A DNA stretch of 64,000 nt, taken from positions 2,411,219 through 2,475,218 of the forward strand of contig NZ_CP094828.1 in NCBI RefSeq assembly GCF_022865125.1. The letters are read 5' to 3'. The notes under the pieces are model-generated. The model had not been told where the DNA came from. It worked only from the letters and a program-made list of their open reading frames with translations, and did not search any database. Positions within the stretch are counted from its first letter, which is position 1; every line of letters starts with the position of its first letter. The position numbers and the translations under genes were made by a program. The stretch comes from Acuticoccus sp. I52.16.1 (lineage in GTDB: Bacteria; Pseudomonadota; Alphaproteobacteria; Rhizobiales; Amorphaceae). Below are positions 42,801 to 60,313 of the stretch, piece by piece.

Positions 42801-43585
42801 CTAGGTCGTGGACTCATGGTGTCGTAGCCATAGGCGGGTCGATGCCAAGGCGACGGCGGCCATGAAGTTTCGGGCGAGTTTGTCGAATCGGGTGGCAATG
42901 CGGCGGAAGTGCTTCAGCTTGTTGAAGTACCGCTCGACGAGGTTGCGCAGCCGATAGAGCGGTGGCGCAACGGTGCGCATAACACGAACGTTGCGCTGAC
43001 TCGGGATGTGGGCGGTGGCGCCTCTGGCCGCACACCATTCGATCAGCGCCTTGGCGCTGTAGCCGCGGTCGGCCACGATGTCCGGTGCGAGTGGGAGCCC
43101 GTCGAGGAGGATCGGCGCTGTTGTCTTGTCGGAGGCCTGACCAGCCGTGATTACGAAGCGGATCGGCAGGCCCCGCTCGTTGACGACGGCGTGGAGTTTG
43201 GTCGTCAGTCCTCCACGAGAACGGCCAATGGCGTGATCCGGGCCCCCTTTTTTCCGCCGGCTGCGTGCTGGTGAGCCTTCACGATGGAGCTGTCGATGAG
43301 CTGGAGCGCGGCCGGCTCTTCTTGAGCAAGTGCCTCGAACACCGCCAGCCATACGCCGCGCTTGGCCCATCTGTTGAAGCGATTGTAGACCGTCGTCGAT
43401 GGGCCATAGCGCGCCGGCAAGTCGCGCCACGGTGACCCGGTCCGCAACACCCAGAAGATGCCGTTGAGGACACGCCGGTCGTCCACACGCTGCTTTCCGG
43501 GCGGCGCCGGCGGCAACAGCGGCTCGATGATCGACCATTCCACTTCGCTCAGATCGTAATGACCTGCCTGGATTCTTCGGACCAC
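42801..43585 (-). pseudogene. IS427-like IS5-family transposase (orfA-orfB), 5' end cut by IS3
   Basis: OrfA originally began at GTG 44868-44870, giving an MARYDLSEVEW start. IS3 insertion after the fourth codon now replaces the N-terminus. The orfA remainder (DLSEVEWSIIEPLLPP, RRVLNGIFWVLRTGSPWRDLP) ends at 43205. OrfB follows by a -1 shift at an A AAA AAG heptamer around 43247-43253, typical of the group. It reads KLHAVVNERGLPIRFVIT and PDIVADRGYSAKAL to the stop in the flanking CTAG. Confidence 0.8.
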
Positions 43586-43587
43586 GC

Positions 43588-44535
43588 TTAGCTTGAGAAC
43601 GCTGCCCCTGTGTCTGCCTCGTTGAGCCCCGTGTGGGGCGGTTTGACGACGGGGCGGGCCGTGGAGGCCCCACATACCGCAGCGGTCCGCCCCGTCGTGG
43701 CCGCTGGGTGTTCGGTGCTGGTCTTCGCCGCGAAGGCGGCCGGCGTCAGATAGCCGAGGCTCGAGTGAGGTCGCACCTCGTTGTAGTGCCGGCGCCAGGC
43801 TTCGATCGTCATCTTGGCCTCGGCGCGCGAGCGAAACCATTCCAGGCTCAGGCACTCGTCGCGGAACTTGCCGTTGAAGCTCTCTCCGGTGCCATTTTGC
43901 CAGGGTTTGCCCGGATCGATCAACGCCGTGTCGGCGCCCTGATCGACGATCCACGCCAGCAGCGCGCGGGAGACGAACTCCGGCCCGTTGTCGGACCGCA
44001 GGTAGAGCGGCGCGCCGCGCTCGGACACAAGGCGCGACAGCACCTCGATGACTCGCGAGGAGCGGATGCGGCCATCGACCTCGATCGCCAGGCCCTCCCT
44101 GGTCCACTCGTCGGTGATCGTCAGGCACTTCAGCTTCTGGCCGTTGGCGCACCAGTCGAACACGAAATCGTAGCTCCAAACCTGGTTCGCTCCGGTCGGT
44201 GCCATCGGACGCGGCCGGCCGGCGGCGATGCGCTTGCGCGGCCGTTTGCGCGGCACCAGCAGCCCGGCTCGCCGCCACAGACGGTACGCCCGCTCGAAGC
44301 TCATGGCGTGACCGTCGCGACCGAGGAAGACCGCGATCCGACGGTACCCGTAGCGCGGATACTGGGCCGAGAGCTCGACCATGCGCCTCAGCACCGGCGC
44401 GTCCTTCTGCGCCTGCCGCGAGCGATAGGTGAGCGCCGACCGTGCTACTCCGATCAGCGTGCAGGCGCGCCGCTGCGACAGGCCCCGGCTCACCGCATAG
44501 GCCACGGCCGCGCGACGCTCCGGCACGCTCACCAT
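43588..44535 (-). CDS. IS3-family transposase orfB (DDE integrase core)
   Basis: The 315-residue integrase region has DDE residues in VWSYDFVFDW, LRSDNGPEFV and NGTGESFNGKFRDECL, plus an N-terminal HTH_21-like segment (YPRYGYRRIAVFL). It is normally made as an orfAB fusion by -1 slippage on a run of seven A residues (44535-44541 on the reverse strand). ATG 44535 could also start it independently. The C-terminus runs to the element end. Confidence 0.88.
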   Translation of the reverse strand: MVSVPERRAAVAYAVSRGLSQRRACTLIGVARSALTYRSRQAQKDAPVLRRMVELSAQYPRYGYRRIAVFLGRDGHAMSFERAYRLWRRAGLLVPRKRPRKRIAAGRPRPMAPTGANQVWSYDFVFDWCANGQKLKCLTITDEWTREGLAIEVDGRIRSSRVIEVLSRLVSERGAPLYLRSDNGPEFVSRALLAWIVDQGADTALIDPGKPWQNGTGESFNGKFRDECLSLEWFRSRAEAKMTIEAWRRHYNEVRPHSSLGYLTPAAFAAKTSTEHPAATTGRTAAVCGASTARPVVKPPHTGLNEADTGAAFSS

Positions 44536-44804
44536 TTTTTTGCAGCGATCTCCTTCATCACCTCGATCTCGAGGTCCCGCTCGACCACCAATTTCTTCAG
44601 CCTCGTGTTCTCCGCCTCCAGCTGCTTCAGCCGCCGCACGTCGTCGGCCTCGAACGCGCCGAAACGCTTGCGCCAAGTATAGATGGTCTGCTCGCTGACA
44701 CCGTGCCGCTTCGCCACCGTCGGCGTCGTATCGCGATCCGCCTCCCGCACGATCGACACCATCTGCTCGTTCGTGAATCTCGACTTGCGCATCCTTCCCT
44801 CCAT
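44529..44804 (-). CDS. IS3-family transposase orfA (HTH)
   Basis: The 91-residue protein has a helix-turn-helix (MVSIVREADRDTTPTVAKRHGVSEQTIYTWRK) and a C-terminal leucine-zipper-like helix (LKQLEAENTRLKKLVVERDLEI), as in IS407-group OrfA. It overlaps orfB at the A7 slippery run. It binds the element's ends and regulates transposition. Confidence 0.88.
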   Translation of the reverse strand: MEGRMRKSRFTNEQMVSIVREADRDTTPTVAKRHGVSEQTIYTWRKRFGAFEADDVRRLKQLEAENTRLKKLVVERDLEIEVMKEIAAKKW

Positions 44805-44945
44805 GCCGGAGGGCAGCCTCTCAAGGAATTGTTGGTCCGAAATTACCGGGGCAGGTCAGTAACGTGCCACGCCCCAACTCCTGACTGACAGGAGATTGAA
44901 TCATGGGCGCGACCATTTGAGAATCCCGGACCATGAGTTCACGAC

Positions 44946-46166
44946 CTAGACCCCAATCAACAGGTGGACACCGCCGGTAACGGGGTCGGATGCCGCATCA
45001 GATCGAGGAGCGAGGCCGTTCGGCCGTTCGAGCGCTGCGGAAGGTCGATGGCTGTCTTTTTCGAGCGGCGGCAGGGTCTTGAGGGACCCGGGCGCACCTC
45101 GCCCGTCGAGCCAGCACCAGCGCTTCATGTTGTAGGCCATGTTGGCGAGCGTGATGCCGGTCTCGGCGCGGACGCGGCCGATGGTGCGCACCGCGAGCCC
45201 CATCACGCTCTTCTGGTGGCCGAAGCAGTGCTCGACGCGGGCTCGCACGGCCGACTTTCGCGTTGGCCCTGGCGTGGTGCTTCGGCATCATCTTGCCGCG
45301 CGGCTTGCGGCGGTGGATCCGTCTGACCCGACCGACGTCCTCGAGGTAGCGCTCGTTCGCCGTCGAGCGGTAGGCCGTGTCGGCCCACACGTCCGCGGCC
45401 GTGTTCATCGGATCGATCAATCCTTCGCGCAGCTGTGCGCCGTCATGGGCCGCCGCGTCGATGACCGTCTGCCGGCGGATGATCCCGTGTCGCCGGTCGA
45501 CCGAGATGTGGCTCTTGGAGCCGTACGTCGGCACCGCGATGTCGATCTGCGCTGAGCCGTCCGCGGCGGGCTTCGCCTCGGCGAACTTCATCGTCCAGCG
45601 GGCGTCGGTGTCCTTCTGGCGCGCCTTGGCCGGCGTCTCCGGCCAGATCTCGTGCGCCGTTCGGCCTTCCTTGATCGCCGCCTTCTCGCCGCCGGTGAGG
45701 CGCTGGCGCGGCGCCGCCACCAGCGTGGCGTCGACGATCTGCCCCGACATCGGCAGATAGCCGGCTCGGTGATCGCGCGGTCGAGCCGCGCGAACAGCGC
45801 CTCGAGCGCACTGGCGGCGATCAGCGCCTCGCGGAAATCCCACAGCGTGTTGGCATCGGGGACCGCATCGCCGGGGCCGAGCCGGCAGAACCGCATCCAG
45901 CTCAGCCGGTCGGCCACGAGGTACTGCGTCTGCGCCAGCGACAGCCCGTGCATTGCTTGTAGCACCAGCATGCGGAACTTCAGCACAGGGTCGAACGGCG
46001 GGCGGCCACCCTTCGACCGGTCGGGTCGGCCCAGCGCCAGGTCGAGGTCCGCCCGGAACATCTCAAAGTCCACCGTCGCGCCGAGCCTCTCCAGCGGGTC
46101 ACCCTGCTCGGACAGAGCCTTCAGCCGATCCTCGACGTCCCAGAAACCGCGCTGACCTGCCGACAT
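44946..46166 (-). pseudogene. degenerate IS5-family transposase with two frameshifts
   Basis: Three consecutive frames make one IS5-type transposase with a DUF772 N-domain. The first (46166 to about 45765) includes GFWDVEDRLKALSEQGDPLERL and ADRLSWMRFCRL. The second (to about 45258) includes GYLPMSGQIVDATLVAAPRQR and VWADTAYRS. The third includes VRARVEHCFGHQKSVMGL and ends in the CTAG flank of the neighbouring IS427-like element. A base is missing near 45765, and one or two near 45258. The neighbouring element may have cut its last codons. The outer ends of this element were not resolved. Confidence 0.75.
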
Positions 46167-46907
46167 CTCGCACCCCGACGAATCAACCCTTGCGTCGGCC
46201 GATTATGCCGGCCCTCGTACTGCGGGGTGGTTTCCGGAGGCGTCCAGCTTCCCGAAACCGTCTCCGACGAGGAACTCGGCGCCGCCATCAGCGCCGCTAT
46301 CGAGGTGAGCCGCGCCGACGGAAAGCGCTGAAACGCTGGCGTTCTCAGCGAGAGGCGGAGCGGAGAATGTTGGGTCCTAGACCCTCTCCCTCCGCCAGTC
46401 GCCTCAGAGAAAGCGTTCTCCCGATGCGGCTGCGGCCGGAAATTCCCGTTGTTTTAGAGGGTTATGCGAGAGAAGCTGTTCACCTGCCCGGCCGTAGGAG
46501 GTCTGCAAGCGGTCTCTTCGAGCCGATATTCTCCGGACCTCATGACTGCACCAATTTGGTGAATGGCCTCCAGGGCATTAAAAACCAAGGGTTTCTCTTC
46601 CAGCGACGCTAATCACTTCGACGTCAGTGGCGCTCGACCAATTGGAACAGAAATCAGACGACGGACGGAGCTTTCGAACGCCTCTGGCAGACCGCAGACG
46701 CGATGGGCTGCCAAGTCATGGAAGCTCCTTCTCGCAGCTTGTCGGTCGTGCCTGAGCTGGAGGACCGGGCGCTAATGGAGCCTTCACGCGCGCGTGAGAC
46801 GCCCCGCCGGAGGTGCGGTAAGGACCTGCCTTGGCCCACCGAGGGCGAACCGCTAAGGATGATACCAGAACGGCTCGAGAAACCAAGCAGGTGACGCTCG
46901 GAGTAGA
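46167..46907. other. gene-poor stretch with gene fragment and repeat copy B
   Basis: These 741 bp contain no intact gene. At 46233-46332 a frame reads GGVQLPETVSDEELGAAI and ends at TGA; it looks like the 3' end of a lost gene. Copy B of the island-flanking repeat is at 46361-46421. The remainder up to the GIY-YIG gene has only short unsupported frames. A promoter for the gene at 46908 should lie here. Confidence 0.5.
46361..46421 (+). repeat. 61-bp island-flanking direct repeat, copy B
   Basis: It is the same length as copy A at 22610-22670 and aligns without gaps at 48 of 61 positions. The conserved core is accctctccctccgcca. It sits just right of the IS cluster and left of the phosphorothioation locus. 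With copy A it brackets 23.8 kb of mostly conflict genes and could be attL/attR of an integrated element. Confidence 0.6.
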
Positions 46908-47552
46908 ATGACCAACGCGATACAAAAGCATCTTTGGGCCGACCTTGGCAACGCTCCTGCGGCATCGGGCATCTACGCGTGGTATTACAGTCCGGAGATT
47001 ACCGACTTCGATCTCGAGCGCACGATCGAGGCGGTGCAGTCCGCGACCGAACGCTCTGAGGCCGAACGGGTGATCAGGGCCGTGCTAGACGGGCGGCTCT
47101 TCCACTACTTTGAGGAGGAACCGTATACCGCGGCGATCAGCGGACCACTGAAGCCCGCTTACGTCGGCTCTCTCGCGCATGAGACAGCGGCATCCGCTAG
47201 CCTAGTTAGTCGCTTGGCGTCGGAACCAGAGCGGCTGCGGACCATCCGTGACGCCTTAACGCTTTCCGCGCCGATGTTCTCCAGCCCACTCTATATTGGA
47301 ATGGCCTCGGTACTGCGATCCCGCCTTGCGCGCCACAAGGAACTCATCGAACGCTTCAGGTCTATCGTACCACGTGACGGACATACAAGCCAAAGTTCGG
47401 ACGCGGGGTTTGCATGGCAGGTCGCGAAGCGTAAGATACCGCCCGAACGCCTCCTGGTTTTTACATGCTTAATCTCGAGTGACGATGGAGCGGCTGTCGA
47501 CATCGAGAATATCCTTAACCGCATCTGCTATCCGATCTTGGGAAGAAACTAA
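46908..47552 (+). CDS. GIY-YIG endonuclease-like protein (Eco29kI-like size)
   Basis: This 214-residue protein has G21-I-Y23 in ASGIYAWYYSP, Y129-I-G131 in PLYIGMASVLRSRLARHKE (with the following arginines), and a C-terminal E200 in VDIENILNRICYPILGRN. These are the three conserved elements of a GIY-YIG nuclease. The spacing between GIY and YIG is longer than in minimal domains, as in restriction enzymes of the Eco29kI type. It ends 1 nt before the DGQHR gene, so the two are one unit. It faces the ssp operon and may cleave unmodified DNA (inference). Confidence 0.65.
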   Translation: MTNAIQKHLWADLGNAPAASGIYAWYYSPEITDFDLERTIEAVQSATERSEAERVIRAVLDGRLFHYFEEEPYTAAISGPLKPAYVGSLAHETAASASLVSRLASEPERLRTIRDALTLSAPMFSSPLYIGMASVLRSRLARHKELIERFRSIVPRDGHTSQSSDAGFAWQVAKRKIPPERLLVFTCLISSDDGAAVDIENILNRICYPILGRN

Positions 47553-47553
47553 C

Positions 47554-49848
47554 ATGAGTCTCGGTCTAAGCATATCGTCGGCCCTCAACCTCACTCTGTC
47601 AGGCTCGATCGGCACGTTCAGCGTTGGAACCGGGAAAGCCGATCAGAAGACCGTCGACGTGAAATACTTCCTTACTCATGTCGGCCTGAATTTTGCAAGT
47701 AGCGCGAACGAGGAAGTGCTTAAGCACCTCGCGCCCGTCCGAGAGATTTTCCCAACGACTGAGCTTGAGTTTGATGAAATCATGCAGCGCGATATTGACG
47801 ATGCGCGCGTGTCTTCTGAACTTGTGCCCTACTTGCTCGACCATCGGTCCAAGGATCTGGTGAAGCTTTTTCCACCGATCATTGTGGTGGTGATGCCGGT
47901 AAAGGAGCTCGATAACCGGCCAGCCGACTACTACCCAAAGGTGGAGACAGAGACGCGCCAAATGTCGGACCACGACCTAGAAATTCTGCGATCGGGTCCG
48001 ATCGGCCAGGAACTCTTTGAGTTCCAACAGCCCCGGCAGGGAAATGTCTTATTCGAACACGACCTCGTTAAGTTGCGGCTCAACACAAATAAATCAAAGC
48101 TCGTGATTGTTGATGGTCAACACCGTGCCATGGCCCTGCTCGCAATCTATCGCAATCTCAAGCAGGATTGGTCCGATGCAATGCGTGCGCCCTACAAAGA
48201 CTACTATGAGGAGTGGACCCCCAGCTACATCCAGCAATTCTCCCTCAAGAATATCAGCCTACCCGTGATGTTCTGCACCTTTCCAGCGCTCGATGAGACC
48301 TACGGCGGTGGGTACAACGTGAAGATGGCCGCACGATCGATCTTCCTGACGCTCAATAAGACCGCGCGCCAGGTTTCGGCGTCGCGCAACCGGTTGCTCG
48401 ACGATAACGATCTGATCGCGCTCTTCCTACGCGATACACTTTCGACGATTAAGAGAAAGGACGCGCGGTCCAGCGCGTCGCTTCGAATTAGCAATGTCGA
48501 ACTTGATCAGGCGCATGACCGGGTCAAGATCGACAGCCCAATAGCTATGACGAGCGTAAATCATATTTATTACTTTATAGAGCACATCCTCCTAAATAAG
48601 CGGGATGAGGACGTGAATGGTGCTAAACCACGCTCGGGCAAGTTCTACAAGCGCACCGAGCTGCAGAGCGCCGGTGCACTCGAACGCCTTGATGGCCGCA
48701 ACGTCCTCGGCGCTGATGTGGCAGACGCCACAAGCCGCAACTTCTACACGCCTGACGCTGGCGGGAAGCTGACCGCGCAGTTCCATGAGCGCTTCGGCAG
48801 ACACATCGTTGCCGCGTTTGAGCGTTTTCTTCCGTTTGAAGCCCATGCCGGAGCTGTCCTTTGGCTCGAGCAGCAACTGCTGAGCCAGTCGAACACCAAG
48901 CTCCGTCCGATCCTCTTCGAGGGCCAGGGAATTGGACGAACGTTCGCCGCACATCAGGAGAACCTCGCAGAGAAGTTGGGGGCCGGGGAGTTTGGGTCAG
49001 AAGCAACCAAGATCCAGGAGGTAGCCGACCGGCTGAAAGCGACCCAGAAGCTCGTGCAGGACTTCATTCAGAAGCTCCGGCATCAGCGCGCCGAGCGCGT
49101 CCTGGCCAGCGTCGCTGATAAGCGAGCGCTGCGACTAGAGGATGGGTCCTACCAACCCAAGGTGCTCGAATTCATCAACGATTTATATGATAACGTCTTG
49201 ACGACCGTTGCGTTTCAGTCCGCGCTCGTCGCGGGCTTCTTCGGCGAGATCGAGAGGTGCAATCTCAGCCGGACGAAAGACAATGCCGCTCCGCTCGACG
49301 TAACAGCGGAATTTGATCGCTACATCTCGGAGCTCAACGCGTTCTTCTCGCCCTCGAAAGCCAGCGACGTTCGCCGTCTGATCGAGGTGTTCGTCGGCAC
49401 GCCTGAGGGCGAGATCAGAGATTGGAAGGTTGGGCCGTCCGCCTCTACGTTCCGACGGGTCGTCTATCGTGGCGAGATGCAGCCCGACCAATGGCCGAAA
49501 TACAAGTATCTTCTGCTGGAAATTTGGCGTGCCGAGGGAAGTGAGCTGGCCGATTCGCTGCGTCAGGAACGCGTTAAGTGCAGAAACCAAATTTTCAACT
49601 CACTTCTCGACGAGTATCGGAAGGATTTTCTGGAGAGAAAATTGATGCGCGAGGAAAACCTGACTCCACAGGATCGTGCAGAGATCGCCGATAGCGCCTA
49701 CGAATCATTCCGCAACTTTTTGAAGAACGTGGGCTGGCGATATCAAGATGTCCCGGCCAAGGCGGCGCTGCTGAAACCGCCAAAGGCTGAGGACGCGACT
49801 GAAGCGCCACCAGCTGATGAGACGTGGGAATCTGTCGAACCAGACTAG
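47554..49848 (+). CDS. DGQHR-domain (DndB-like) protein
   Basis: This 764-residue protein carries the signature DGQHR at residues 187-191 (LVIVDGQHRAMALLAIYRN), with IFLTLNKTARQVSASRNRLLDDNDLIALFLRD downstream, as in DndB/DGQHR proteins. DndB regulates Dnd phosphorothioation genes, and the related DGQQR motif of SspE senses phosphorothioate and drives NTP hydrolysis. It is about twice the length of DndB; the second half is helical with a charged tail. It is coupled to the GIY-YIG gene, and ATG 47554 follows GGAAG. It is a likely sensor, NTPase or regulator for that nuclease. Confidence 0.8.
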   Translation: MSLGLSISSALNLTLSGSIGTFSVGTGKADQKTVDVKYFLTHVGLNFASSANEEVLKHLAPVREIFPTTELEFDEIMQRDIDDARVSSELVPYLLDHRSKDLVKLFPPIIVVVMPVKELDNRPADYYPKVETETRQMSDHDLEILRSGPIGQELFEFQQPRQGNVLFEHDLVKLRLNTNKSKLVIVDGQHRAMALLAIYRNLKQDWSDAMRAPYKDYYEEWTPSYIQQFSLKNISLPVMFCTFPALDETYGGGYNVKMAARSIFLTLNKTARQVSASRNRLLDDNDLIALFLRDTLSTIKRKDARSSASLRISNVELDQAHDRVKIDSPIAMTSVNHIYYFIEHILLNKRDEDVNGAKPRSGKFYKRTELQSAGALERLDGRNVLGADVADATSRNFYTPDAGGKLTAQFHERFGRHIVAAFERFLPFEAHAGAVLWLEQQLLSQSNTKLRPILFEGQGIGRTFAAHQENLAEKLGAGEFGSEATKIQEVADRLKATQKLVQDFIQKLRHQRAERVLASVADKRALRLEDGSYQPKVLEFINDLYDNVLTTVAFQSALVAGFFGEIERCNLSRTKDNAAPLDVTAEFDRYISELNAFFSPSKASDVRRLIEVFVGTPEGEIRDWKVGPSASTFRRVVYRGEMQPDQWPKYKYLLLEIWRAEGSELADSLRQERVKCRNQIFNSLLDEYRKDFLERKLMREENLTPQDRAEIADSAYESFRNFLKNVGWRYQDVPAKAALLKPPKAEDATEAPPADETWESVEPD

Positions 49849-49898
49849 TTCACGGAGTAACCGGGCAGCCGCTCTACCTCAAAAGTCTTCTCGCCCCG

Positions 49899-50109
49899 TG
49901 TCTGTTGCCGAGGTGGTAGCTTAGGAGTTGGGGAAGGGAGCCCGTCCCACCCAAGGGCCCCGGAGCCCGTTAGGGAGCATGGGTCCCTTCCGCATCGCTC
50001 TTGAACCCTGAACAGTTGCTTGGGACTGCCGATCCCGCACGACATGGACAGGACCTCCACCATGCCACGCACCATCATCGGCTGCGACCTCTCGCGCGCC
50101 GTCAGTTGA
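49899..50109 (+). mobile_element. IS110-family left-end fragment with truncated transposase start
   Basis: The first 76 bp match 28144-28219 (about 78%). They are followed by a GC-rich, foldable non-coding leader to 50061, then ATG 50062 reading MPRTIIGCDLSRAVS and a stop at 50107-50109. IIGCDLSRA matches the N-terminal start of the IS110 DEDD transposase. In IS110 elements the left non-coding end specifies bridge RNA, so 49899-50061 may preserve such an RNA. The remainder of the element is gone. Confidence 0.65.
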
Positions 50110-50218
50110 GACCGCCCTTGGCCTGACCGTCATACTGCATCTCCCCGGTTAGCCTGGTGTCATTCTGTTGGGCCGATGTGGGTGGCTTTTGGCATCTCTG
50201 GCATTGCGCTGCTGGCCC
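50110..50218. other. short gene-free gap before the sspD end
   Basis: These 109 bp hold no gene. They separate the IS110 debris from the 3' end of the reverse-strand sspD gene. No strong terminator hairpin is evident. Confidence 0.4.
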
Positions 50219-51058
50219 TCATTTGTGGCAGATGACGCAGGAGGCCGCGACTTCAGCCGTGCCGTATGCGTCGTCGATTTCGATGTCAGTCAGATTAGCA
50301 CGCAGCGGGTTTTTAGGCCGGCGCGCTTTGGCCCGCTCAAAGCGCTGCTGATAATCATCCTCTATCTGCTTGATGCGCTCTGGTCGCTCCAACTCAGTGA
50401 GCGACTCTCGGTCACTCCAGGTGAACGGCGAGCCGTGCTCAAGGGCCGACTTCTCGTACGCCTTGGCCTCTTCGAAGGCTTCCGGGTGGGTTCGTTTGAG
50501 GCGCACCCACTCGATCTTCTGTTGGTAGAAGCAGAATGTGCAGCCGCTGCGTGAACGCCAATCATAGTAGGTAGGCAGGCCAAGTCCGGAGGATTCCAGA
50601 AGTTCGACCACAGCGGACTTATCGAGACCATGCTTGCGCAACGGGAAGGTGATCTTCAGATTGGGATGGGTCGCCTGCATGCCTGTGCGAGCCGGCTCAT
50701 CGGCGCGAATCGCGACGTAGCTGATAATCTCGCTGCCACTCTCCAGATCACTCTTCACCCATTTCTCGAACGGGCGTAACTTGAGCTGGCGCGTGCACCA
50801 TCGGGTACGTGGGGAGGGCAGAAAATTGCCATACTCCTTGAGCCAGAAATCGAAGTCGCGGTCGGGATTGAGATAGGCGATAGGGCGCCCTAGAAAGCCT
50901 TCCAAGCGGCCCAGGAATTCATAAACCTCGGGTAGCTCCTTGCCCGTGTCGGTGAAAAAATACTCGATCGGCAGGTCTGGGTAGGTCTGGCGCATGAACA
51001 CAGCCAAGGCAGCGCTGTCGCGCCCTCCGGACAGGCCGAGAACGTGGCGCGTACTCAT
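50219..51058 (-). CDS. sspD: SspD-type PAPS-reductase-like PP-loop ATPase
   Basis: This 279-residue protein starts with VLGLSGGRDSAALAVFM, the PP-loop (SGGxDS). It carries cysteines in RTRWCTRQLK, SGCTFCFY and the C-terminal ASCVICHK that could hold an Fe-S cluster. The PAPS-reductase-like fold matches DndC/SspD, which activates the DNA backbone for sulfur insertion. It overlaps the sspC stop as ATGA. The gene order sspA-B-C-D on this strand matches the single-strand phosphorothioation operon, so the symbol is by family and context. Confidence 0.82.
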   Translation of the reverse strand: MSTRHVLGLSGGRDSAALAVFMRQTYPDLPIEYFFTDTGKELPEVYEFLGRLEGFLGRPIAYLNPDRDFDFWLKEYGNFLPSPRTRWCTRQLKLRPFEKWVKSDLESGSEIISYVAIRADEPARTGMQATHPNLKITFPLRKHGLDKSAVVELLESSGLGLPTYYDWRSRSGCTFCFYQQKIEWVRLKRTHPEAFEEAKAYEKSALEHGSPFTWSDRESLTELERPERIKQIEDDYQQRFERAKARRPKNPLRANLTDIEIDDAYGTAEVAASCVICHK

Positions 51059-54000
51059 CCTGTCAGGCTCCTCATCGCATCATCATGCGCGCCCATGCGC
51101 TGCATGCCCGCCTCGGCGAGGGCGGCCAATGCCACGGCATCGCTGACTCCAGCTTTGGCGAGAATACCTTGAAGGCTTGCGGCTAGCGCCTTGGCGGCCT
51201 CCTGCTCTGCCGGTGACAGCTCCACGGCCTGATGGGCAGTGGCGCCCCGCGCACCCGTGCCGACAACTACGCCAAGCGCATGGCGGCTTGGGGCGCGCCC
51301 TTGCACCTGCGCCAGCATCTCGGCCTGGCGAAACCCAAGAGCAAGCTTGCCCGCCTCCAAGGCAGCGCGGTTAGGCTCGAGATCGCTCCAATTGCGCGGG
51401 GGCTTGTTGGCTAGCAGACCGGCTAGGGATTCCATATCAACAAGGCTTCCCGAAAAGTTCTGCAGACGCGCCGCAAAGGCATCAAGCCGCAAATCGCCGG
51501 AAATGCCCTTGATGGTCTCTGCACGGCGCTGCAGCGCCGCTAGCGGGCCTTCCTTATGGCCGAGAGCATCAAGCATCTTGTCCCGCAATCGGCCAAGCAT
51601 GGTGTCGTAGGCTTCATTCAGCTCGCGTAGAAGGCCACCAATATGGGGAGCGACTGACGCGGGAGCCTCGCTTCCGCTAAGCTGTACCAAATCGACAAAG
51701 ATTGTTCGGTGCGGATCACTGGCTGCCCGCATGATCCGGCAAAGCTCCTGAGCTTCCTTTGAAACGGAGGATGTGCGGCGCGTCCATTCCGGAAGGCGCA
51801 TCACGAATTCAACCAGAGCTTGGGCGACATGCAGAGGCTTGAGCTCAGGCGCGCGCGCCATAACGGTGTCGATCTCGACGCTCAGCGCCTTGAGAAGGGC
51901 TTCGCCCTCAGTTTTCGGATCAACGTGGCGCAGGGACAGATCCCGCGGGTCTTGGAGCAGGCGATCGACCACATAGTCATTGATCTCAGGCTGGAAGACG
52001 CCGTCGACATAGACGGCCATGGTGGAGCGGTGCGCGAGGATAAAGGAAGCAGCCAATAGCGGCAGCAATCCGGAGCGCACACCGAAGGGCGGCTGCTGCC
52101 ACAGCCCATAAATATCCAGAAGGGGAAACTCTCCAGCCTTCTCAAATGCGAGCTGCTCGGCCTGCTGCCACATGGGGCGCAGGCTTGTGCCGGCCTTGGT
52201 CGTGGGCAGCTGAAAGCCAAATCCGCCCTTGGAACTCCGATGTAGGCCAGTGGCTTTGAGCACGGTGCGATAGAGCCCCATCTCCGCAGGGAAGCCTTCC
52301 ATTCCCAGATCATCCAGATCAGGGCTATTGACCATGGCATGCAGCAGGGCGCGCACCGCCGCCTGGCTGTTGCTGGAGGGCTGCTCACGGTTGACCAGCT
52401 CGCTGCGAATATGCGGCGTCTCGGGGAAGGTCGCATCAGCTAGGGTTGAGGCAATCTGCGCTATGGCCTGGCTACTCCCCGCCTTATGCGCGGTGCCATG
52501 GACATACCAGGTCGCCAGAACAAAGCCTTGGCGCAGCGCCTCTTCAAGTTCGGCCCTAACCACGGCCAATCGCGCCTCAAGCTCCCGGCGGGCAACAGCA
52601 TCGCCTTCGAGGGCCGGGTGCCCCTGGCGAATGCGCTCCAACGCGAGCAGCGCTGAGCCGGACTTGCGGATATGCTGCGCATTGGGCGGCACCCCTAGCG
52701 CGACGGGATACGCACCGGTCTTGGTTGACACCTCGCGGCAGCGAGCCGCCGGCTTCGAGGCCGGCCAGTCATCATCCGGGATAACCAGCAGGAACTGTCC
52801 TGCGGCTCCATTGGTAGGGCTGTAGCGCTCGACAGTTTTGGCCAACCCCTGCGGTGACGCCAATCCCGCTGTGAACCAGCGCAGCGTTCCCGTGGTGAAA
52901 TAGTGCTTCTTTGCCAAGACGGGCTGCAGATCGGCGAAGGTGGACAGGCGATTTAGGTCCAGCTCACCGAGCTGGGTTTTCACTTCGACAAGCGCGGCTT
53001 CAATATCGAAATCGCTGCCGGCGAAAAGGGCGAAGGCATTAAGATGCCCTCTGTAGACCGTCACTGACCAATCCTGCAGCTGCTGCAAGGCGTGGTCGAC
53101 TGCCTCCGGTGCTGCATCAGGCACGCAGGTAGCCAAGATGCTGCGCTCGGGCAGTACCCCGCTTCCGCCATGGAACAGCTCAATTACGGCGATGCTCTTG
53201 GCAAGCTTCAGGTGCAGCGCTTCGCCATTGCGCTCGCAGCGCTGCACGGCATCCACCGCTTCGGACCAGCGATGAGAGTCGGGAGACGCAAGGATGGCGG
53301 GTTCCAGATTGGCTCGCAGATAGTCCCACAGCTGGGCAGGATCATAGGGGGCTGAGCCCGCCTCATGCGTCTTGAGATATTCCTGAAACCCACCGGGCTC
53401 GGCAGAATTGAGGAACCCGAAGACGCTGCGCTCATTCTGGCCGAAACGCCGGCGCGACAGGGGACCAATCAGGGCTGCGCTGACCGGATGAAGCGGCCAA
53501 CAGGCCGCAAGGCGCTCTGCCAGGTCATGTGGGCTGCCAGGTCGACGCCGGCGGATGGCGTCGGCAGCCGTTCCGATTATCTCGGTAGGGATGAGCGCCT
53601 GGTTAGCACGCGTGAGAGCTCGGCCAATGAGATCGAGAACTTCATCGATCGCCGTGACGATTGGGATATCGACAAAACGGCCCTGAATCTTGGCCCAATC
53701 GTCCTGCATGTCGGCGCCGAAACGCCGCGCATACTGATCGAAGGATTGATGCAGAACACCAACGATCAGCAGCCGGCCTTCACAGCGGGCGGCGGCCTCG
53801 GCGAGTTCCTGAAAGAAGTGGATATCGGCACTGCCATCAGCAGCGGCCTCCAGGTATTTCCCGAGCTCATCTATGACAAGCAGCACGCCGGCCTCTGGTC
53901 GCGCAGAAGCCTCCCTCAAGAGGCGATCGATTACGTCACGGCCGGCAGGATCAATCTGACGGCGCTTGGTGCGCGCTGGCTTCGCCTCGCGGGCGACTGC

Positions 54001-54396
54001 ATCCGCCACGGCCTCGCGCAGATCTGAGACGGGGTCGGCGCGGCGCCCAACAAGCGGCACAACCAGCCATGGTTCTGCCTCTTGCGGGAAGGCATCGCGG
54101 AAACCGGGCACGTCGCCAAGCAGCTGCAGCCCAGCCTGCTTTTGTTTTGCGCTGCCGCCAATGGTTTGGCAAAGCAGAAGCGCAAGGCTCGACTTGCCGC
54201 CCCCATAGGGGCCGGTCCAAGTGAAGGCGCGCTGGCCCGTCTCCTGGTAGAGGCGCGCCATGGTCTCGATGGCCTGGCGGCCAGAGCCATGGCAGACATA
54301 GCCCTGCAGGGCACCATTGGTAGCGTGATCCGTGTCGAGCCGTACGGAACGCTGAAACCGGCGGGAGACGGCGACGATATCGGACAGCATGCTCAT
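51055..54396 (-). CDS. sspC: SspC-type large P-loop ATPase
   Basis: This 1113-residue protein has Walker A GPYGGGKSS at 62-70 and Walker B VLLVIDELGKYLE at 171-183 (D176/E177). The P-loop region resembles BrxC-like ATPases of defence systems. The long remainder is mostly helical, with no other recognised domain. The start ATG at 54394-54396 overlaps the sspB stop (ATGA); an alternative ATG is at 54390. It lies between DUF4007 and PP-loop genes, matching SspC of SspABCD. It probably couples ATP hydrolysis to the modification complex. Confidence 0.8.
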   Translation of the reverse strand: MSMLSDIVAVSRRFQRSVRLDTDHATNGALQGYVCHGSGRQAIETMARLYQETGQRAFTWTGPYGGGKSSLALLLCQTIGGSAKQKQAGLQLLGDVPGFRDAFPQEAEPWLVVPLVGRRADPVSDLREAVADAVAREAKPARTKRRQIDPAGRDVIDRLLREASARPEAGVLLVIDELGKYLEAAADGSADIHFFQELAEAAARCEGRLLIVGVLHQSFDQYARRFGADMQDDWAKIQGRFVDIPIVTAIDEVLDLIGRALTRANQALIPTEIIGTAADAIRRRRPGSPHDLAERLAACWPLHPVSAALIGPLSRRRFGQNERSVFGFLNSAEPGGFQEYLKTHEAGSAPYDPAQLWDYLRANLEPAILASPDSHRWSEAVDAVQRCERNGEALHLKLAKSIAVIELFHGGSGVLPERSILATCVPDAAPEAVDHALQQLQDWSVTVYRGHLNAFALFAGSDFDIEAALVEVKTQLGELDLNRLSTFADLQPVLAKKHYFTTGTLRWFTAGLASPQGLAKTVERYSPTNGAAGQFLLVIPDDDWPASKPAARCREVSTKTGAYPVALGVPPNAQHIRKSGSALLALERIRQGHPALEGDAVARRELEARLAVVRAELEEALRQGFVLATWYVHGTAHKAGSSQAIAQIASTLADATFPETPHIRSELVNREQPSSNSQAAVRALLHAMVNSPDLDDLGMEGFPAEMGLYRTVLKATGLHRSSKGGFGFQLPTTKAGTSLRPMWQQAEQLAFEKAGEFPLLDIYGLWQQPPFGVRSGLLPLLAASFILAHRSTMAVYVDGVFQPEINDYVVDRLLQDPRDLSLRHVDPKTEGEALLKALSVEIDTVMARAPELKPLHVAQALVEFVMRLPEWTRRTSSVSKEAQELCRIMRAASDPHRTIFVDLVQLSGSEAPASVAPHIGGLLRELNEAYDTMLGRLRDKMLDALGHKEGPLAALQRRAETIKGISGDLRLDAFAARLQNFSGSLVDMESLAGLLANKPPRNWSDLEPNRAALEAGKLALGFRQAEMLAQVQGRAPSRHALGVVVGTGARGATAHQAVELSPAEQEAAKALAASLQGILAKAGVSDAVALAALAEAGMQRMGAHDDAMRSLTG

Positions 54397-55355
54397 GCGG
54401 CACTCCTCTGCGCTGCGGACTCATAGGCAGAAGCCAAAAATCCTATGCGGTCGGGGTTTTCGCTGCGGCGAGCGACGTTGCGCACGCCGGCCGTGTCGGA
54501 CCAGATAAAGGCCCGAGTTGAGCTCTCTTCGATGCGCGCCAATCGCTCCACCAAAGCATCTTCATCGAGCTTGAAGACGCGGCCTGGTGAGCCGGGCTCG
54601 AATGTCAGCGCTTCGACCGAGAGAGTCTTCTGTTCAGGCGCATAGCGCGACCAGAAATCATTCAGGGCAAAGAGAAAGATGCCGTCAGGCAAAGTGGGCT
54701 TGGCGCCCCTGCGAAACTGGAAGGCCTTGCTACTAACAGCCCGAATCAGTCCAAGCGGTACCAAGGCCGGCTCGAATAGGTCGTCACTGAACTTTCCGTG
54801 CCGTGTGGGGACATAGCTTCGTATGAAGCACTCTACATCCCGCTTGATAGTCGCGTCCGACGCGCGAATGCGGTTCTTGAGCACCGCATTCTGCTGGTCG
54901 CGATAATCGCGCAGCGGCGCTGCGATCGCTTCATGATCGAAGGTCTGCACCGTGAGATGATTGAAGGCATAGAACCATGTGGTGCTGCGCTCCGGCGCAC
55001 CGGCCATCATCCAATGCAGCAGCCAAAGCGTCGCCGGTGCTTCCAAGAATGGATCGACGCCGCGCTCATCGCCAAACAGATAATCGCCGATCGGTGTAGT
55101 GCGGAAGAAATCACCGTCTTCTGTGAGCACGCCGCACGTCAGTGCCCAATGGCGAATGGCGGCAACCATATTCTTGCCCACCCCGAAGGTGACGATCGCC
55201 TCCGGATCTGTAAAGATTGACCTTGGCGCCGCGCCGTCCTTTCCCGCGGCCACCTGATCATATGCCTTCTTGAGCCAGAGATGGCGCAGCGGGAAGGTCT
55301 CGTGACCTGAGAATTGCGCGCGGAATGTCGGGTCGGCGAGGGGGCCTCTAATCAT
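54393..55355 (-). CDS. sspB: SspB-type DUF4007 protein
   Basis: This 320-residue protein begins MIRGPLADPTFRAQFSGHETFPLRHLWLKKAYD (split here by domain): FSGHETFPLRHLWLKK near residue 15, VTFGVGKNMVAAIRHWA, and later DDLFEPALVPLGLI, all typical of DUF4007. SspB is reported as the DNA-nicking partner of single-strand phosphorothioation. An AGGAGG site precedes ATG 55355. It is 79 nt downstream of sspA and overlaps sspC by 4 bp. Confidence 0.8.
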   Translation of the reverse strand: MIRGPLADPTFRAQFSGHETFPLRHLWLKKAYDQVAAGKDGAAPRSIFTDPEAIVTFGVGKNMVAAIRHWALTCGVLTEDGDFFRTTPIGDYLFGDERGVDPFLEAPATLWLLHWMMAGAPERSTTWFYAFNHLTVQTFDHEAIAAPLRDYRDQQNAVLKNRIRASDATIKRDVECFIRSYVPTRHGKFSDDLFEPALVPLGLIRAVSSKAFQFRRGAKPTLPDGIFLFALNDFWSRYAPEQKTLSVEALTFEPGSPGRVFKLDEDALVERLARIEESSTRAFIWSDTAGVRNVARRSENPDRIGFLASAYESAAQRSAA

Positions 55356-55434
55356 GAAACGGTCCTCCTGGATGGAGCATCCAGTCTCTGTGGCAGAGAG
55401 ATATATCCTCGCGTTGGTTGCCGCATGACTGTCC

Positions 55435-56595
55435 TCAGGCCGCAGCGCGGATGTGGGACAGGCGATCCGCCTTCTCACAGATCAGCGTTGTCGCCTTATC
55501 GATGTCGTCAATGGTGGTAAAACGCCCAAAGCCGAGGCGCAGGGAAGCGCTTGCCTCGGCAGGCGTGAGGCCGATCGAGCCGAGCACATAAGAGGGCTCG
55601 ATCAGGCCGGCATTGCAGGCAGAACCCACCGAGGCCGCAAGCTCCGTCTGCAGCGTCATCAGCAGGGCATGTGCATCAATGCCCGGAATGCAGATATTTA
55701 AGCAGCCGCTGAGGCTGCGAGTCTCTGAGCCATTGACCTTGAGCGCAGGCAGCCCCTCTTTCAGCCGGCTCAACAGGCGAGATTTGAGAAATTCCGTGTG
55801 CGCCGCATCCTTGGCTTGCTGTACGAGTGCCTTCCCCGCAGCTGCAGCAATTCCGGCACAGAGCATCGGGGCGAGTGTCCCGGCGCGCATCCCGTGCTGC
55901 TGACCGCCACCATGGATAATGGGTGCAATCTGAGGTCGCACGTCAGCGGCGAGGTAAAGCGCTCCAATCCCCTTCGGACCGTAGAATTTGTGCGCTGACA
56001 GGCTGAGCAGATCAATGCCGGTGGCGGCAACATCGATCGGAAGCTTGCCGACAAGCTGCGCGGCATCCGTATGGAATAGTGCCCCGGCCTCAGCACATAG
56101 GGCGCCAATTTCCTGCAGCGGCTGCAGCGTGCCGATCTCGTTATTTGCCGCCATCACCGAGACCAAAGCCGTATCAGGCCCTATTAACTGCGGTAGTCGC
56201 TCCAGATCGACGATGCCGTCGGCCTGCACGGGGATGGTCTCGACTTTAAGGCCGAGCTCGGCGAGCGCTTGTGCCGGCGCAAGCACGCTCTTGTGCTCGA
56301 TGGCAGAGACCAAAATATGACGCCGCTTCGTGCGCTTTGCCGCCCCGAGCAGGCTCAGATTGTTGGCCTCGGTTGCGCCGCCGGTCACGATAATCTCGCC
56401 GGGCGCCGCACCAATCAGCTCAGCAACCGCTCGGCGCGCATCCTCCACGGCCTCAGCCGCATCCCAGCCAAGTGCATGCTCCGAATGCGGATTGCCGAAC
56501 CGGTCTTCAAGGAACGGCAGCATGGCCGCACGCACATCCGGATCAAGCGGAGTGGTCGCTTGGTAATCCAGGTATATCGGCGCGGATCGGCTCAT
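55435..56595 (-). CDS. sspA: SspA/DndA-type cysteine desulfurase
   Basis: This 386-residue class V aminotransferase has PLP lysine K203 in SLSAHKFYGPKG and catalytic C327 in GSACNAG. The NifS/IscS-like start APIYLDYQATTPLDP is also clear. It mobilises sulfur from cysteine as a persulfide. The three genes downstream (DUF4007, P-loop ATPase, PP-loop protein) show that this is the sulfur donor of a phosphorothioation system rather than an Fe-S assembly gene. It starts two bases from the stop of an upstream, frameshifted RHH gene. Confidence 0.85.
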   Translation of the reverse strand: MSRSAPIYLDYQATTPLDPDVRAAMLPFLEDRFGNPHSEHALGWDAAEAVEDARRAVAELIGAAPGEIIVTGGATEANNLSLLGAAKRTKRRHILVSAIEHKSVLAPAQALAELGLKVETIPVQADGIVDLERLPQLIGPDTALVSVMAANNEIGTLQPLQEIGALCAEAGALFHTDAAQLVGKLPIDVAATGIDLLSLSAHKFYGPKGIGALYLAADVRPQIAPIIHGGGQQHGMRAGTLAPMLCAGIAAAAGKALVQQAKDAAHTEFLKSRLLSRLKEGLPALKVNGSETRSLSGCLNICIPGIDAHALLMTLQTELAASVGSACNAGLIEPSYVLGSIGLTPAEASASLRLGFGRFTTIDDIDKATTLICEKADRLSHIRAAA

Positions 56596-56596
56596 C

Positions 56597-56814
56597 TCAT
56601 TCCTCGGATGCCGGCTGCGAGAAGGGCAGCTCGGGCTGTTGGCTTGCATGTTGGCGTTCAACGAACTCTGCCACCGCGCGACGCACGGCCCATGAGAGCG
56701 ACAGATCGTTGCTCTTGGCGATGCGCAGCAGCGTCGAGTGGAGCTGAGGGTCAAACTCACCGTGAAGCGGACAGTGTCCTTTCTGCCTCTTGGTCGGTGA
56801 CCACCTTTCACCAT
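56597..56814 (-). pseudogene. frameshifted ribbon-helix-helix regulator upstream of sspA
   Basis: The first frame from ATG 56814 reads RKDTVRFTV. After one missing base (gtgag where gtggag is expected) another frame continues EFDPQLHSTLLRIAKSNDLS and then WAVRRAVAEFVERQ to the TGA at 56597-56599. Joined, this is a 72-residue CopG/ribbon-helix-helix-like protein. The 218-bp length is one base short of 73 codons. It could have been the operon's repressor. A sequencing error or programmed slippage is the alternative. Confidence 0.65.
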
Positions 56815-56985
56815 GTCAGCATCAAACTCAACCCACCTGGAGGAGTCGTCCAGGTTCGGATCCTATGAGATGGCGATATGCTAAGTGAGGACCCTTGTTC
56901 TTGCAACGTTCTCCTCCCTATCTCGCTTGTGCGCCGCTTTCGTCCCGAGGTGTCCGACGGCCGCAGGAGCAGGCGTAATGTCCTG

Positions 56986-57378
56986 CTAAGAAAGCGCTTT
57001 ATCTCGAAACTCTTGCGCCATCCACTCCACCGGAAACGGCTCCAGCACCCTCGCCAGCGTCACTTCCGGCCTCTGCCTGCCGTCCAGGATCGCCTCGACG
57101 AGGTCCGGTGCCAGCAGCGTCAGACGCAGGATGCGTGTCATGTATGACGGCGCGATCTTTTCCCGCTCAGCCAGCTCCGCGATCGTCGCGATCTCTCCTG
57201 ACCGCAACATGCGCTCCCACCGGAATGCGCGCGCCAGCGCTTTTACCAACGCGTTGTCCAGCTCCGGCCGCGATGGTGCGCCGTCCGGCAGCCGGATTTC
57301 CTTTCGCCCGCCACGCTTTACGGTCCGAAATGGGACATGAACCGTCACGGTGTCGGGAATCGGCGTAGCGCGGGTCAT
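56986..57378 (-). CDS. phage/recombinase-associated small protein (LAPDLVEAILDGRQ type)
   Basis: This 130-residue protein contains IATIAELAEREKIAPSYMTRILRLTLLAPDLVEAILDGRQRP (here given by its key parts): an HTH-like helix EREKIAPSYMTRIL and the conserved LAPDLVEAILDGR. Such proteins are commonly encoded right after large serine recombinases in alphaproteobacterial prophage-like regions. It overlaps the recombinase fragment by 4 bp (ATGA). Function is unknown; a DNA-binding role is suggested by the HTH-like segment. Confidence 0.65.
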   Translation of the reverse strand: MTRATPIPDTVTVHVPFRTVKRGGRKEIRLPDGAPSRPELDNALVKALARAFRWERMLRSGEIATIAELAEREKIAPSYMTRILRLTLLAPDLVEAILDGRQRPEVTLARVLEPFPVEWMAQEFRDKALS

Positions 57379-57647
57379 GCGGCGCGGTCCAAATTGTCCG
57401 CCAGCGTTTCGCGCGCGAGTCCGACCAAGCCATCGACCCGAAGCTGAACGTTCAGCCCATCGGTGCCAATGTCGATCCGCTCGACCAGCAGCGCCACGAT
57501 GCGCGCCTTCTCCGCCGGGAATAGCTCATCCCAAGTCGGGTTCAGCTGGTGCAGCGCGGTGTGGATGACGCCGTGCGCCAGGATCGCGCAGACTTGGCGC
57601 CGCCGCTCGCGCGGGCTGAGATGTTGCGGGTGAATGGGATTGGGCAT
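57375..57647 (-). pseudogene. fusion scar: small phage protein start joined to serine recombinase C-terminus
   Basis: The frame from ATG 57647 begins MPNPIHPQHLSPRERRRQVC, like small phage proteins, then changes to WDELFPAEKARIVALLVERI and VQLRVDGLVGLARE. The second part matches the extreme C-terminus of large serine recombinases. The catalytic N-terminus is absent, so a deletion has joined two gene ends. It marks a former integrase region next to the tail module. Confidence 0.6.
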
Positions 57648-60086: not shown

Positions 60087-60313
60087 ACCTGCCGCAGACC
60101 GTCGAGGGCTGGCAGGTGTGGGACCTCGCCCAGCGCATGGGCGGACAAGTCCGTGTCGTGCCTGGCGGCATCGTCGGCTGGGACATGACCGCGGCGCTCG
60201 CCATGGCTGACGCGCTGAGCGTCAGCACGCTCGCCGCCGCCGAGATGCTCCCTGCGCTCGAAGCGGCGGCGGTAACCGCCATAAACAAGCAGATCGGATC
60301 GGAGCATGTCTGA
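59994..60313 (+). CDS. gpT-like extension of the tail chaperone, read by -1 frameshift
   Basis: The -1 frame has four cysteines in YCDACPSPCPEC, a zinc-knuckle-like cluster, then WQVWDLAQRMGGQVRVVPGG and a helical tail ending at TGA 60311-60313. It has no start codon of its own near the site, which supports translation only as a fusion with the upstream gene. It overlaps the tape measure start (60306) by 8 bp. The T part in other phages contacts the tape measure and tail tube subunits. Confidence 0.65.

What the first reader, a model, noticed from the sequence alone, without database searches (positions are those of the whole stretch)
46908..56814. SspABCD phosphorothioation operon faced by a GIY-YIG plus DGQHR pair instead of SspE
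The reverse operon has cysteine desulfurase, DUF4007, P-loop ATPase and PAPS-reductase-like genes in sspABCD order. The known restriction partner SspE carries a DGQQR sensor and a nicking domain in one protein. Here no SspE is present. A GIY-YIG nuclease-like protein and a separate 764-residue DGQHR protein, 1 nt apart, occupy the neighbouring position. This could be a split, undescribed phosphorothioate-sensing restriction module.
Basis: partly seen in the sequence, partly recalled or inferred. Interest (0 to 1): 0.82.

Follow-up and report, generated by a model that had tools for sequence, protein, structure and literature searches.

The report
Nuclease-sensor pair linked to DNA phosphorothioation
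Next to genes that put sulfur into this bacterium's DNA backbone lies a two-gene cassette, a probable DNA-cutting enzyme and a large partner protein, that seems to travel as one unit between bacteria and nearly always sits in genomes with such sulfur-tagging genes, so it is probably an undescribed defence module that relies on the sulfur tag.

Summary
In detail: sspDCBA (reverse strand) faces a 214-residue GIY-YIG-type protein and a 764-residue DGQHR protein, 1 nt apart. No SspE-type (GmrSD_N) domain was found in the genome. The pair recurs widely. Of 80 loci found with the DGQHR protein, 64 have ssp or dnd genes in the flank and 12 more lie in genomes with DndC or SspD elsewhere; 58 of 80 have the GIY-YIG gene, usually within a few nt. 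All 63 GIY-YIG copies aligned keep the catalytic Tyr, Tyr, Arg, His and Glu. GIY-YIG and DGQHR proteins evolve in lockstep (r 0.96) but follow SspB/C/D only loosely (r 0.43-0.49), so they look like a cassette that moves between modification operons. A distinct shorter pair (about 175 + 420 residues) occurs with ssp and with dnd too. The DGQHR protein is a large DndB relative, not an SspE relative by sequence, although three superfamily motifs are shared. Best reading: a two-protein phosphorothioate-dependent restriction effector. "Instead of SspE" is too simple: three relatives carry both. No activity has been tested. In the literature seen, GIY-YIG nucleases are noted at Dnd boundaries as possible backups.

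The parts
46908..47552 (+). GIY-YIG nuclease-like protein, 214 aa; Y23, Y129, R139, H143, E200 predicted catalytic; about 100-aa insert between the GIY and YIG strands
47554..49848 (+). DGQHR protein, 764 aa, large DndB relative (ParB-like superfamily); Q78-R79, D187-R191, F264-N268 motifs; helical C-terminal half
50219..51058 (-). sspD, PAPS-reductase/ATP-pyrophosphatase-like sulfurtransferase
51055..54396 (-). sspC, P-loop ATPase, 1113 aa
54393..55478 (-). sspB, DUF4007
55435..56814 (-). sspA, cysteine desulfurase (start uncertain; the conserved domain begins about 77 aa in)

Best explanation
The pair is the restriction (effector) half of a phosphorothioation-based defence system. SspABCD marks host DNA with sulfur (inferred from gene content). 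The DGQHR protein, a ParB/DndB-superfamily protein, binds DNA and reads the mark, probably by NTP binding or hydrolysis at its DGQHR motif (inferred from SspE and DndI, where changing the arginine of DGQQR destroys hydrolysis). It holds or releases the GIY-YIG protein, which nicks or cuts invading DNA (the nuclease is predicted from topology and catalytic residues, not shown). The two genes form one cassette that moves between ssp operons and has a sister lineage on dnd operons. Whether the mark licenses the nuclease (as for SspE) or restrains it (as for DndFGH and DndI) cannot be told from sequence; I lean slightly to licensing, because a cassette that moves on its own survives better if harmless in unmodified cells.
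For: Linkage: 64 of 80 DGQHR loci in genome contigs have ssp (43) or dnd (21) genes in the flank; 12 of the other 16 lie in genomes with DndC or SspD elsewhere. Background: SspB in 8 of 385 and 14 of 396 other genomes of the window's class and phylum. One unit: 58 of 62 pairs have a gap of -1 to 7 nt (starts chosen by script). GIY/DGQHR distance correlation 0.96 against 0.43-0.49 to SspB/C/D, which correlate 0.87-0.95 with each other. Cassette transfer in this locus: pair 82/88% identical to L009, whose SspC is 39% identical. Catalytic residues 63 of 63; core topology b-b-a-a-b-a at pLDDT 91.6; dN/dS 0.02-0.14 in the comparisons with finite dS (5 of 10 for GIY, 6 of 10 for DGQHR). On the DGQHR tree ssp and dnd partners are separated by one change (71 labelled rows). 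A short GIY-YIG + DGQHR pair occurs at ssp (L135, L136, L144, L156) and dnd (L158) loci. Where GIY-YIG is absent, an HNH nuclease (L033, L051) or SspE-type protein (L053) can stand upstream of DGQHR. No GmrSD_N in this genome.
Against: No activity, binding or phage data. Pair and other effectors co-occur: SspE-type in 3 of 41 and DEAD/GHKL/PLD genes in 12 of 41 ssp+pair loci; SspFGH beside a short pair in L157. So the pair may be accessory. 22 of 80 loci lack the GIY-YIG gene, 11 of them among the 21 dnd loci. DndB, the nearest characterised relative, is a transcriptional regulator (PMC4507180, passages). Hormoscilla L045/L049/L052 have the DGQHR protein without GIY in genomes with DndC but no strong SspD. 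Four loci lie in genomes without a strong DndC or SspD (L025, L042, L051, L061); L025 and L042 have the pair. The correlation of the pair with SspB/C/D is weak but above every one of 500 permutations, so the two parts are not independent. Short DndB-like proteins also occur without a short GIY (L017, L018, L039, L054, L068; 2 of 7 plasmid hits). Foldseek gave no significant match for either model.
Confidence: 0.6

Rival explanations
1. Backup suicide nuclease: the GIY-YIG protein is a general DNA-destroying effector kept in check by the DGQHR protein and released when phage disables the main system, not a phosphorothioate-reading restriction enzyme. This is the role proposed for URI genes at Dnd boundaries in PMC10853773 (section 17 read).
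For: Pair lies at the edge of the modification operon and here on the opposite strand; 12 of 41 ssp+pair loci have DEAD, GHKL or PLD genes and 3 have an SspE-type gene; L157 has SspFGH; the upstream slot can hold HepT or PIN genes (L008, L045).
Against: 26 of 41 ssp+pair loci hold none of the other effectors tested (SspE and SspF/G/H profiles were built from single sequences, and flanks are limited to 10 kb or the contig end); the ssp and dnd lineages of the DGQHR protein are separated by one change, which suggests fitting to the modification type.
Confidence: 0.17
2. Regulator: the DGQHR protein is a large DndB-like transcriptional regulator of the ssp operon, and the GIY-YIG protein assists it or is incidental.
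For: Nearest characterised relative is DndB, which in Salmonella binds palindromes in the dndBCDE promoter region (PMC4507180, passages).
Against: 19 of 21 dnd loci with the DGQHR protein also carry a canonical DndB. No TACGN8-12CGTA site in 46000-50300 or 56000-57500; the two upstream regions share no palindrome, only one 12-base match that lies inside the long sspA frame. A regulator does not explain an unchanged nuclease active site in 63 of 63. The pair follows SspBCD only loosely.
Confidence: 0.12
3. Part of the modification machinery: the GIY-YIG protein supplies a nick for sulfur insertion or repairs modified DNA.
For: SspB nicking is reported as essential for single-strand phosphorothioation (PMC8092258, first part of the text read), so a nickase near ssp is plausible.
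Against: None of 22 other SspB-positive genomes sampled has the long DGQHR protein; three gave partial matches that are short DndB-like proteins. So it is dispensable. Loose co-evolution with SspBCD.
Confidence: 0.06
4. Hitchhiker: an unrelated cassette that merely gathers in the same defence islands.
For: Defence-like genes lie nearby in the window (28878-32621, 36603-42722); the cassette looks mobile.
Against: 76 of 80 loci in genomes with phosphorothioation genes against SspB in 2-4% of sampled genomes; two forms of the pair, each seen with both modification types.
Confidence: 0.05

Closest known systems
SspABCD-SspE (Ssp system)
   Same: SspABCD present; a DGQ(H/Q)R protein and a nuclease beside it; QR, DGQxR and FxxxN motifs shared at superfamily level (motifs from PMC4619093 passages; nearly invariant here)
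   Different: two separate proteins; nuclease is GIY-YIG, not DUF1524/HNH; no SspE homology by hhalign; no GmrSD_N in the genome
DndB / DGQHR family (PF14072, TIGR03187)
   Same: weak but real homology over residues about 50-355
   Different: below both curated cut-offs; mostly 715-810 aa with a helical C-terminal half; coupled to a nuclease gene; coexists with canonical DndB in 19 of 21 dnd loci
URI/GIY-YIG nucleases at Dnd boundaries (PMC10853773)
   Same: GIY-YIG nuclease linked to phosphorothioation genes
   Different: that paper, in the section read, speaks of Dnd, treats the nuclease as stand-alone backup and names no DGQHR partner
DndI (DUF262-DUF1524; IscS-DndBCDE-DndI)
   Same: DGQQR ATPase plus nickase logic; small effector for a modification operon (PMC11662687, abstract and passages)
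   Different: one fused protein with HNH nuclease; other families
SspFGH and DndFGH
   Same: restriction partners of phosphorothioation operons; SspFGH sits beside a short pair in L157
   Different: three other proteins; no GIY-YIG (recalled for DndFGH)

Membership tests
SspABCD phosphorothioation operon | sspA, sspB (DUF4007), sspC (ATPase), sspD (sulfurtransferase) adjacent | tested here: met
SspABCD phosphorothioation operon | phosphorothioate at 5'-CCA-3' in host DNA | not testable with these tools
   needs LC-MS/MS
SspE | DUF262/GmrSD_N domain with DGQQR | tested here: not met
   GmrSD_N E 0.065, 13.8 bits under the 33.2 cut-off; hhalign to an SspE-type set of 5 gives 0.4%; motif is DGQHR
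SspE | C-terminal DUF1524 HNH nuclease in the same protein | tested here: not met
   no GmrSD_C or HNH match at E<=0.1
DndB / DGQHR family | match to PF14072 or TIGR03187 above the curated score | tested here: not met
   26.6 of 29.1 and 35.1 of 58.85 bits; relative L053 reaches 30.3 bits on PF14072
DndB / DGQHR family | QR pair, DGQHR, FxxxN motifs (described in PMC4619093) | tested here: met
   Q78-R79 86 of 88, D187-R191 88 of 88, F264 and N268 88 of 88 aligned rows. DGQHR was part of one search pattern, so its constancy is partly by construction; it is 7 of 7 in A1, whose 6 relatives were found by tblastn without a pattern
DndB (transcriptional regulator) | binds TACGN10CGTA palindromes at its promoter | tested here: inconclusive
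   site absent in the two regions scanned, but the motif may differ
GIY-YIG nuclease superfamily | catalytic Tyr (GIY), Tyr (YIG), Arg, His/Tyr four residues on, Glu (roles recalled) | tested here: met
   63 of 63 aligned copies
GIY-YIG nuclease superfamily | b-b-a-a-b-a core (recalled) | tested here: met
   order of elements in the model, with an insert between b1 and b2
GIY-YIG nuclease superfamily | profile or structure match | tested here: inconclusive
   window protein 0 families; 40 of 59 members weakly match PF01541; UvrC and Endonuclease II best among PDB chains at E 0.13-0.67; Foldseek none
DEAD-GHKL-PLD effector genes | their genes in this locus | tested here: not met
   no hit of the three profiles in the window
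SspFGH / PbeABCD | their genes in this genome | not tested
   the PADLOC models were run on 9 window proteins only (no match to these families); not on the rest of the window or genome

The most novel reading that the evidence does not exclude
It serves both the single-strand (Ssp) and double-strand (Dnd) marks, and two lineages of GIY-YIG + DGQHR pair, long and short, have settled on both modification systems.
Probability: 0.35. Interest if true: 0.85.

Novelty: new variant of a known kind. Interest (0 to 1): 0.74.

Why it matters
With two query sequences, only 199 and 196 of 2,678 sspBCD loci were found to have SspE or SspFGH nearby (PMC8092258, passage), so many ssp operons have no recognised effector. 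A two-gene cassette with a predicted nuclease and a DndB-like partner, shared by Ssp and Dnd, would fill part of that gap. It also reopens what DndB-family proteins do (regulator only, or reader of the mark) in a form that can be tested directly.

Tried and rejected
Foldseek against PDB for both models: nothing at E<=0.001; the long insert between the GIY and YIG strands may hide the fold. Sequence profile against PDB chains: UvrC and Endonuclease II only, at E 0.13-0.67; for the DGQHR protein only chance-like matches, best E 0.25. Long GIY against short GIY by hhalign: 61%, aligned over the N-terminal part, so common origin of the two GIY genes is not shown. Phage records: no match to the DGQHR protein. 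Viral contigs gave 2 loci: L090 without the GIY gene, and L089 cut off where it would lie. Promoter-like sites: 1 found against 3.1 expected; terminators 4 against 7.6: nothing to use. DndB-type operators: none found.

Rejected: that the DGQHR protein is simply DndB (19 of 21 dnd loci have both); that pair and SspE exclude each other (L010, L029, L039).

Dropped rows and limits: one search found 97 relatives and kept 80, so 17 were not seen; loci were counted, not independent events (for instance three Hormoscilla). L006 (GIY annotated in two pieces) was left out of the GIY count, and the shortened L159 copy came later and was not in it. L061, L089, L057 and L083 were left out of the tree, a 'quick' tree that warns of long branches; its 14 'none' rows were not counted for the ssp/dnd change. 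The mirror test used 36 of 43 ssp loci (all five genes present), then 37 with the window. Of 22 SspB-positive genomes, 20 were fetched (G579 and G732 not). Of 7 plasmid hits to the long protein, 6 were fetched (H4 not). 'None in flank' depends on bit thresholds set. DndC controls: 5 of 14 ring, none over the cut-off; SspD controls: 7 of 14 ring (strengths not shown), so only SspD matches of 359 bits or more were counted. The class, order and phylum samples share some genomes.
Full report
What is there. The window holds sspD, sspC, sspB and sspA on the reverse strand (50219-56814), each with a strong PADLOC match. Facing them on the forward strand are a 214-aa protein (46908-47552) and a 764-aa protein (47554-49848) with one base between stop and start. 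No GmrSD_N domain, the mark of SspE and DndI, was found in the whole genome, and no DEAD, GHKL, PLD or SspE profile hit occurs in the window. SspFGH was not searched for in the rest of the genome.

The small protein is a GIY-YIG nuclease by several weak but agreeing lines. 40 of 59 members of its alignment match Pfam GIY-YIG at E<=10 (best 5.7e-4) and 4 match GIY_YIG_2; the commonest family of another kind matches 3. All 63 copies aligned keep G21, Y23, Y129, G131, R139, H143, E200, P209 and G212. The AlphaFold2 model (pLDDT 91.6) has strand 21-27, strand 129-133, helix 136-152, helix 164-174, strand 182-188 and helix 193-207, which is the order of the GIY-YIG core (recalled), with about 100 residues inserted between the first two strands. 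Foldseek found nothing, so the assignment rests on sequence and topology. Purifying selection is strong where it can be measured (dN/dS 0.06-0.14 for GIY in the 5 of 10 comparisons with finite dS).

The large protein belongs with DndB, loosely. hhalign gives 89.3% to canonical DndB, 97.4% to short DndB-like proteins and 0.4% to a set of five SspE-type proteins. It is under the cut-offs of both family models. The QR, DGQHR and FxxxN motifs that PMC4619093 describes as common to DGQHR domains and to the GmrS (DUF262) domain are all present and almost invariant. SspE and DndI use the DGQQR motif for NTP hydrolysis that responds to phosphorothioate (PMC9646914 and PMC11662687, passages). So it may work like the SspE sensor; what it is, by sequence, is a large DndB relative.

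Linkage. The genome-contig scan found 97 relatives and kept 80. With thresholds fixed, 43 loci have ssp genes in the flank (41 with the GIY gene), 21 have dnd genes (10 with GIY) and 16 neither (7 with GIY). Of the genomes of those 16, 11 have DndC above its cut-off elsewhere and one has a strong SspD only. That leaves L025, L042, L051 and L061, all metagenome bins by their titles; L042 has a phosphorothioation-type methyltransferase hit in its flank. In all, 76 of 80. For comparison SspB occurs in 8 of 385 and 14 of 396 other genomes sampled from the window's class and phylum, and dndBCD in 568 of 31,478 genomes in PMC11662687 (passage). In the other direction the long pair is rare. The DGQHR protein is in 1 of 289 class genomes, its own. 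The GIY gene is in 2 of 397 order genomes: its own, and a shortened copy (L159) with no partner in the 20-kb stretch and a transposase-like frame (by eye) beside it. None of 22 other SspB-positive genomes has the long DGQHR protein; three partial matches are short DndB-like proteins. So the pair implies phosphorothioation genes, but phosphorothioation genes do not imply the pair.

One cassette. Gaps between the two genes are -1 to 7 nt in 58 of 62 pairs (start codons chosen by script). Distances among GIY proteins and among DGQHR proteins correlate at 0.96, while each correlates only 0.43-0.49 with SspB, SspC or SspD; those three correlate 0.87-0.95 among themselves (n=36; n=37). By rank the figures are 0.87 against 0.13-0.23 and 0.69-0.85. 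The weak linear correlations still exceed all of 500 permutations, so the two parts are not independent. Within the window's clade (n=23) it is 0.94 against 0.55-0.69, with SspB/C/D at 0.93-0.98. This genome is an example: its pair is 82% and 88% identical to that of Sphingobium lactosutens (L009), whose SspC, SspA, SspB and SspD are 39%, 41%, 46% and 68% identical to the window's; its SspD is 93% identical to that of L013, whose DGQHR protein is 55% identical. The pair is therefore probably not a fixed subunit of the modification complex. Yet on the DGQHR tree, ssp- and dnd-linked rows (71 of 85) are separated by a single change (quick tree), so lineages keep to one modification type.

Variants. 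In 10 actinomycete loci without the GIY gene (9 with dnd genes in the flank) a GHKL ATPase stands upstream (the family was checked on L058). Elsewhere the slot holds an HNH endonuclease (L033, L051, both without phosphorothioation genes in the flank), an SspE-type protein (L053), HepT (L008) or PIN (L045). A distinct, short pair (GIY-YIG 173-196 aa in most, DndB-like about 420 aa) follows sspD in 3 of 20 sampled ssp loci (L135, L136, L144) and in a Roseobacter plasmid (L156, which also has DEAD, GHKL and PLD genes). It lies beside SspFGH and sspD in a Rhizobium plasmid (L157), and precedes dndBCDE in another (L158). In the plasmid collection all 5 records with the short GIY also have the short DGQHR protein next to it by coordinates; 2 further records have a relative of that protein without the short GIY. 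L041 has both the long and the short pair. Short DndB-like proteins also occur without a short GIY in L017, L018, L039, L054 and L068. The short GIY proteins keep Y64, Y83, R98, Y102 and E145 in 7 of 7. A GIY-YIG nuclease with a DGQHR protein thus recurs in two forms, each seen with both modification types.

Other effectors. 26 of 41 ssp+pair loci show none of the other effectors tested; 3 have an SspE-type gene (L010, L029, L039) and 12 have DEAD, GHKL or PLD genes (some profiles come from single sequences, and flanks end at 10 kb or the contig end). L010's SspE-type gene matches PADLOC SspE at 853.8 bits. So the pair can be the sole effector recognised, as here, or an additional one. SspFGH and SspE are reported to be compatible in one cell (PMC8092258, first part read), so coexistence does not exclude an effector role.

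Prior reports. Searches for DGQHR with GIY-YIG, phosphorothioat- with GIY-YIG and DndB, DGQHR, SspBCD with DndB, phosphorothioation with GIY-YIG, nuclease and defense and sspABCD with UvrC, URI and endonuclease showed no description of this pair in titles, abstract starts or the passages I opened. I opened 8 papers, most of them only in passages. PMC10853773 (section 17 read; passages) notes URI/GIY-YIG genes at the edges of Dnd systems and proposes them as suicidal backups. PMC3226654 (passages) lists a 'DGQHR domain protein' besides DptB correlated with the Dnd system in 7 of 7 genomes.

Judgement. A phosphorothioate-dependent effector is the most likely function (0.6). Backup nuclease, regulator, modification helper and hitchhiker follow. 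Shown: gene content, linkage, co-evolution, conservation of the active site. Inferred: nuclease activity, sensing, restriction, and its direction.

Noticed in passing
L133, L136, L137, L139, L143, L144, L147-L150; L005, L014, L016, L056, L156: A DEAD helicase (PbeA/TIGR04095-like) + GHKL ATPase (MzaB-like) + PLD (DrmC-like) gene set sits beside ssp operons in 10 of 20 sampled loci (PLD not seen in L136 and weak in several); PADLOC gives only weak names. It may be a common, little-described Ssp effector.
   Followed up: partly
L028:2965-3420 (-) and 8 other loci (cluster 12): A second, 152-aa GIY-YIG-like protein (by eye) next to a GHKL ATPase near ssp genes; no family match.
   Followed up: no
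L058, L063, L067, L069, L070, L072, L074, L079, L084, L085: Actinomycete loci, 9 of 10 with dnd genes in the flank (L072 has DndC elsewhere), where a GHKL ATPase of about 576-663 aa stands upstream of the DGQHR protein and the GIY-YIG gene is absent.
   Followed up: partly
L138:14846-17281 (-): An 812-aa protein without Pfam or PADLOC match is convergent with an ssp operon that is nearest to the window's in SspA, SspB and SspC (54-59%; SspD 81%), in the position of the pair.
   Followed up: no
window 28878-32621, 36603-38021, 38352-42722: TIR + nSTAND1, TPR-S sensor, and nSTAND1 + WD40 genes: looks like a defence island upstream of the pair.
   Followed up: partly
window 42801-46166: Transposase-like reading frames (DUF772 by Pfam at 45591-46166; others by eye) between the STAND gene and the pair, some overlapping.
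   Followed up: no
window 60306-63502: Phage-tail or gene-transfer-agent-like genes (DUF2460, baseplate hub Gp84, BR0599).
   Followed up: no
L013:3-926: SspD 93% identical to the window's in a Rhodobacteraceae metagenome bin whose pair is only 45-55% identical: the reverse of the L009 case.
   Followed up: partly
L045, L049, L052 (Hormoscilla): DGQHR protein without GIY-YIG or local phosphorothioation genes; a PIN gene upstream in L045; DndC elsewhere in the genomes.
   Followed up: partly
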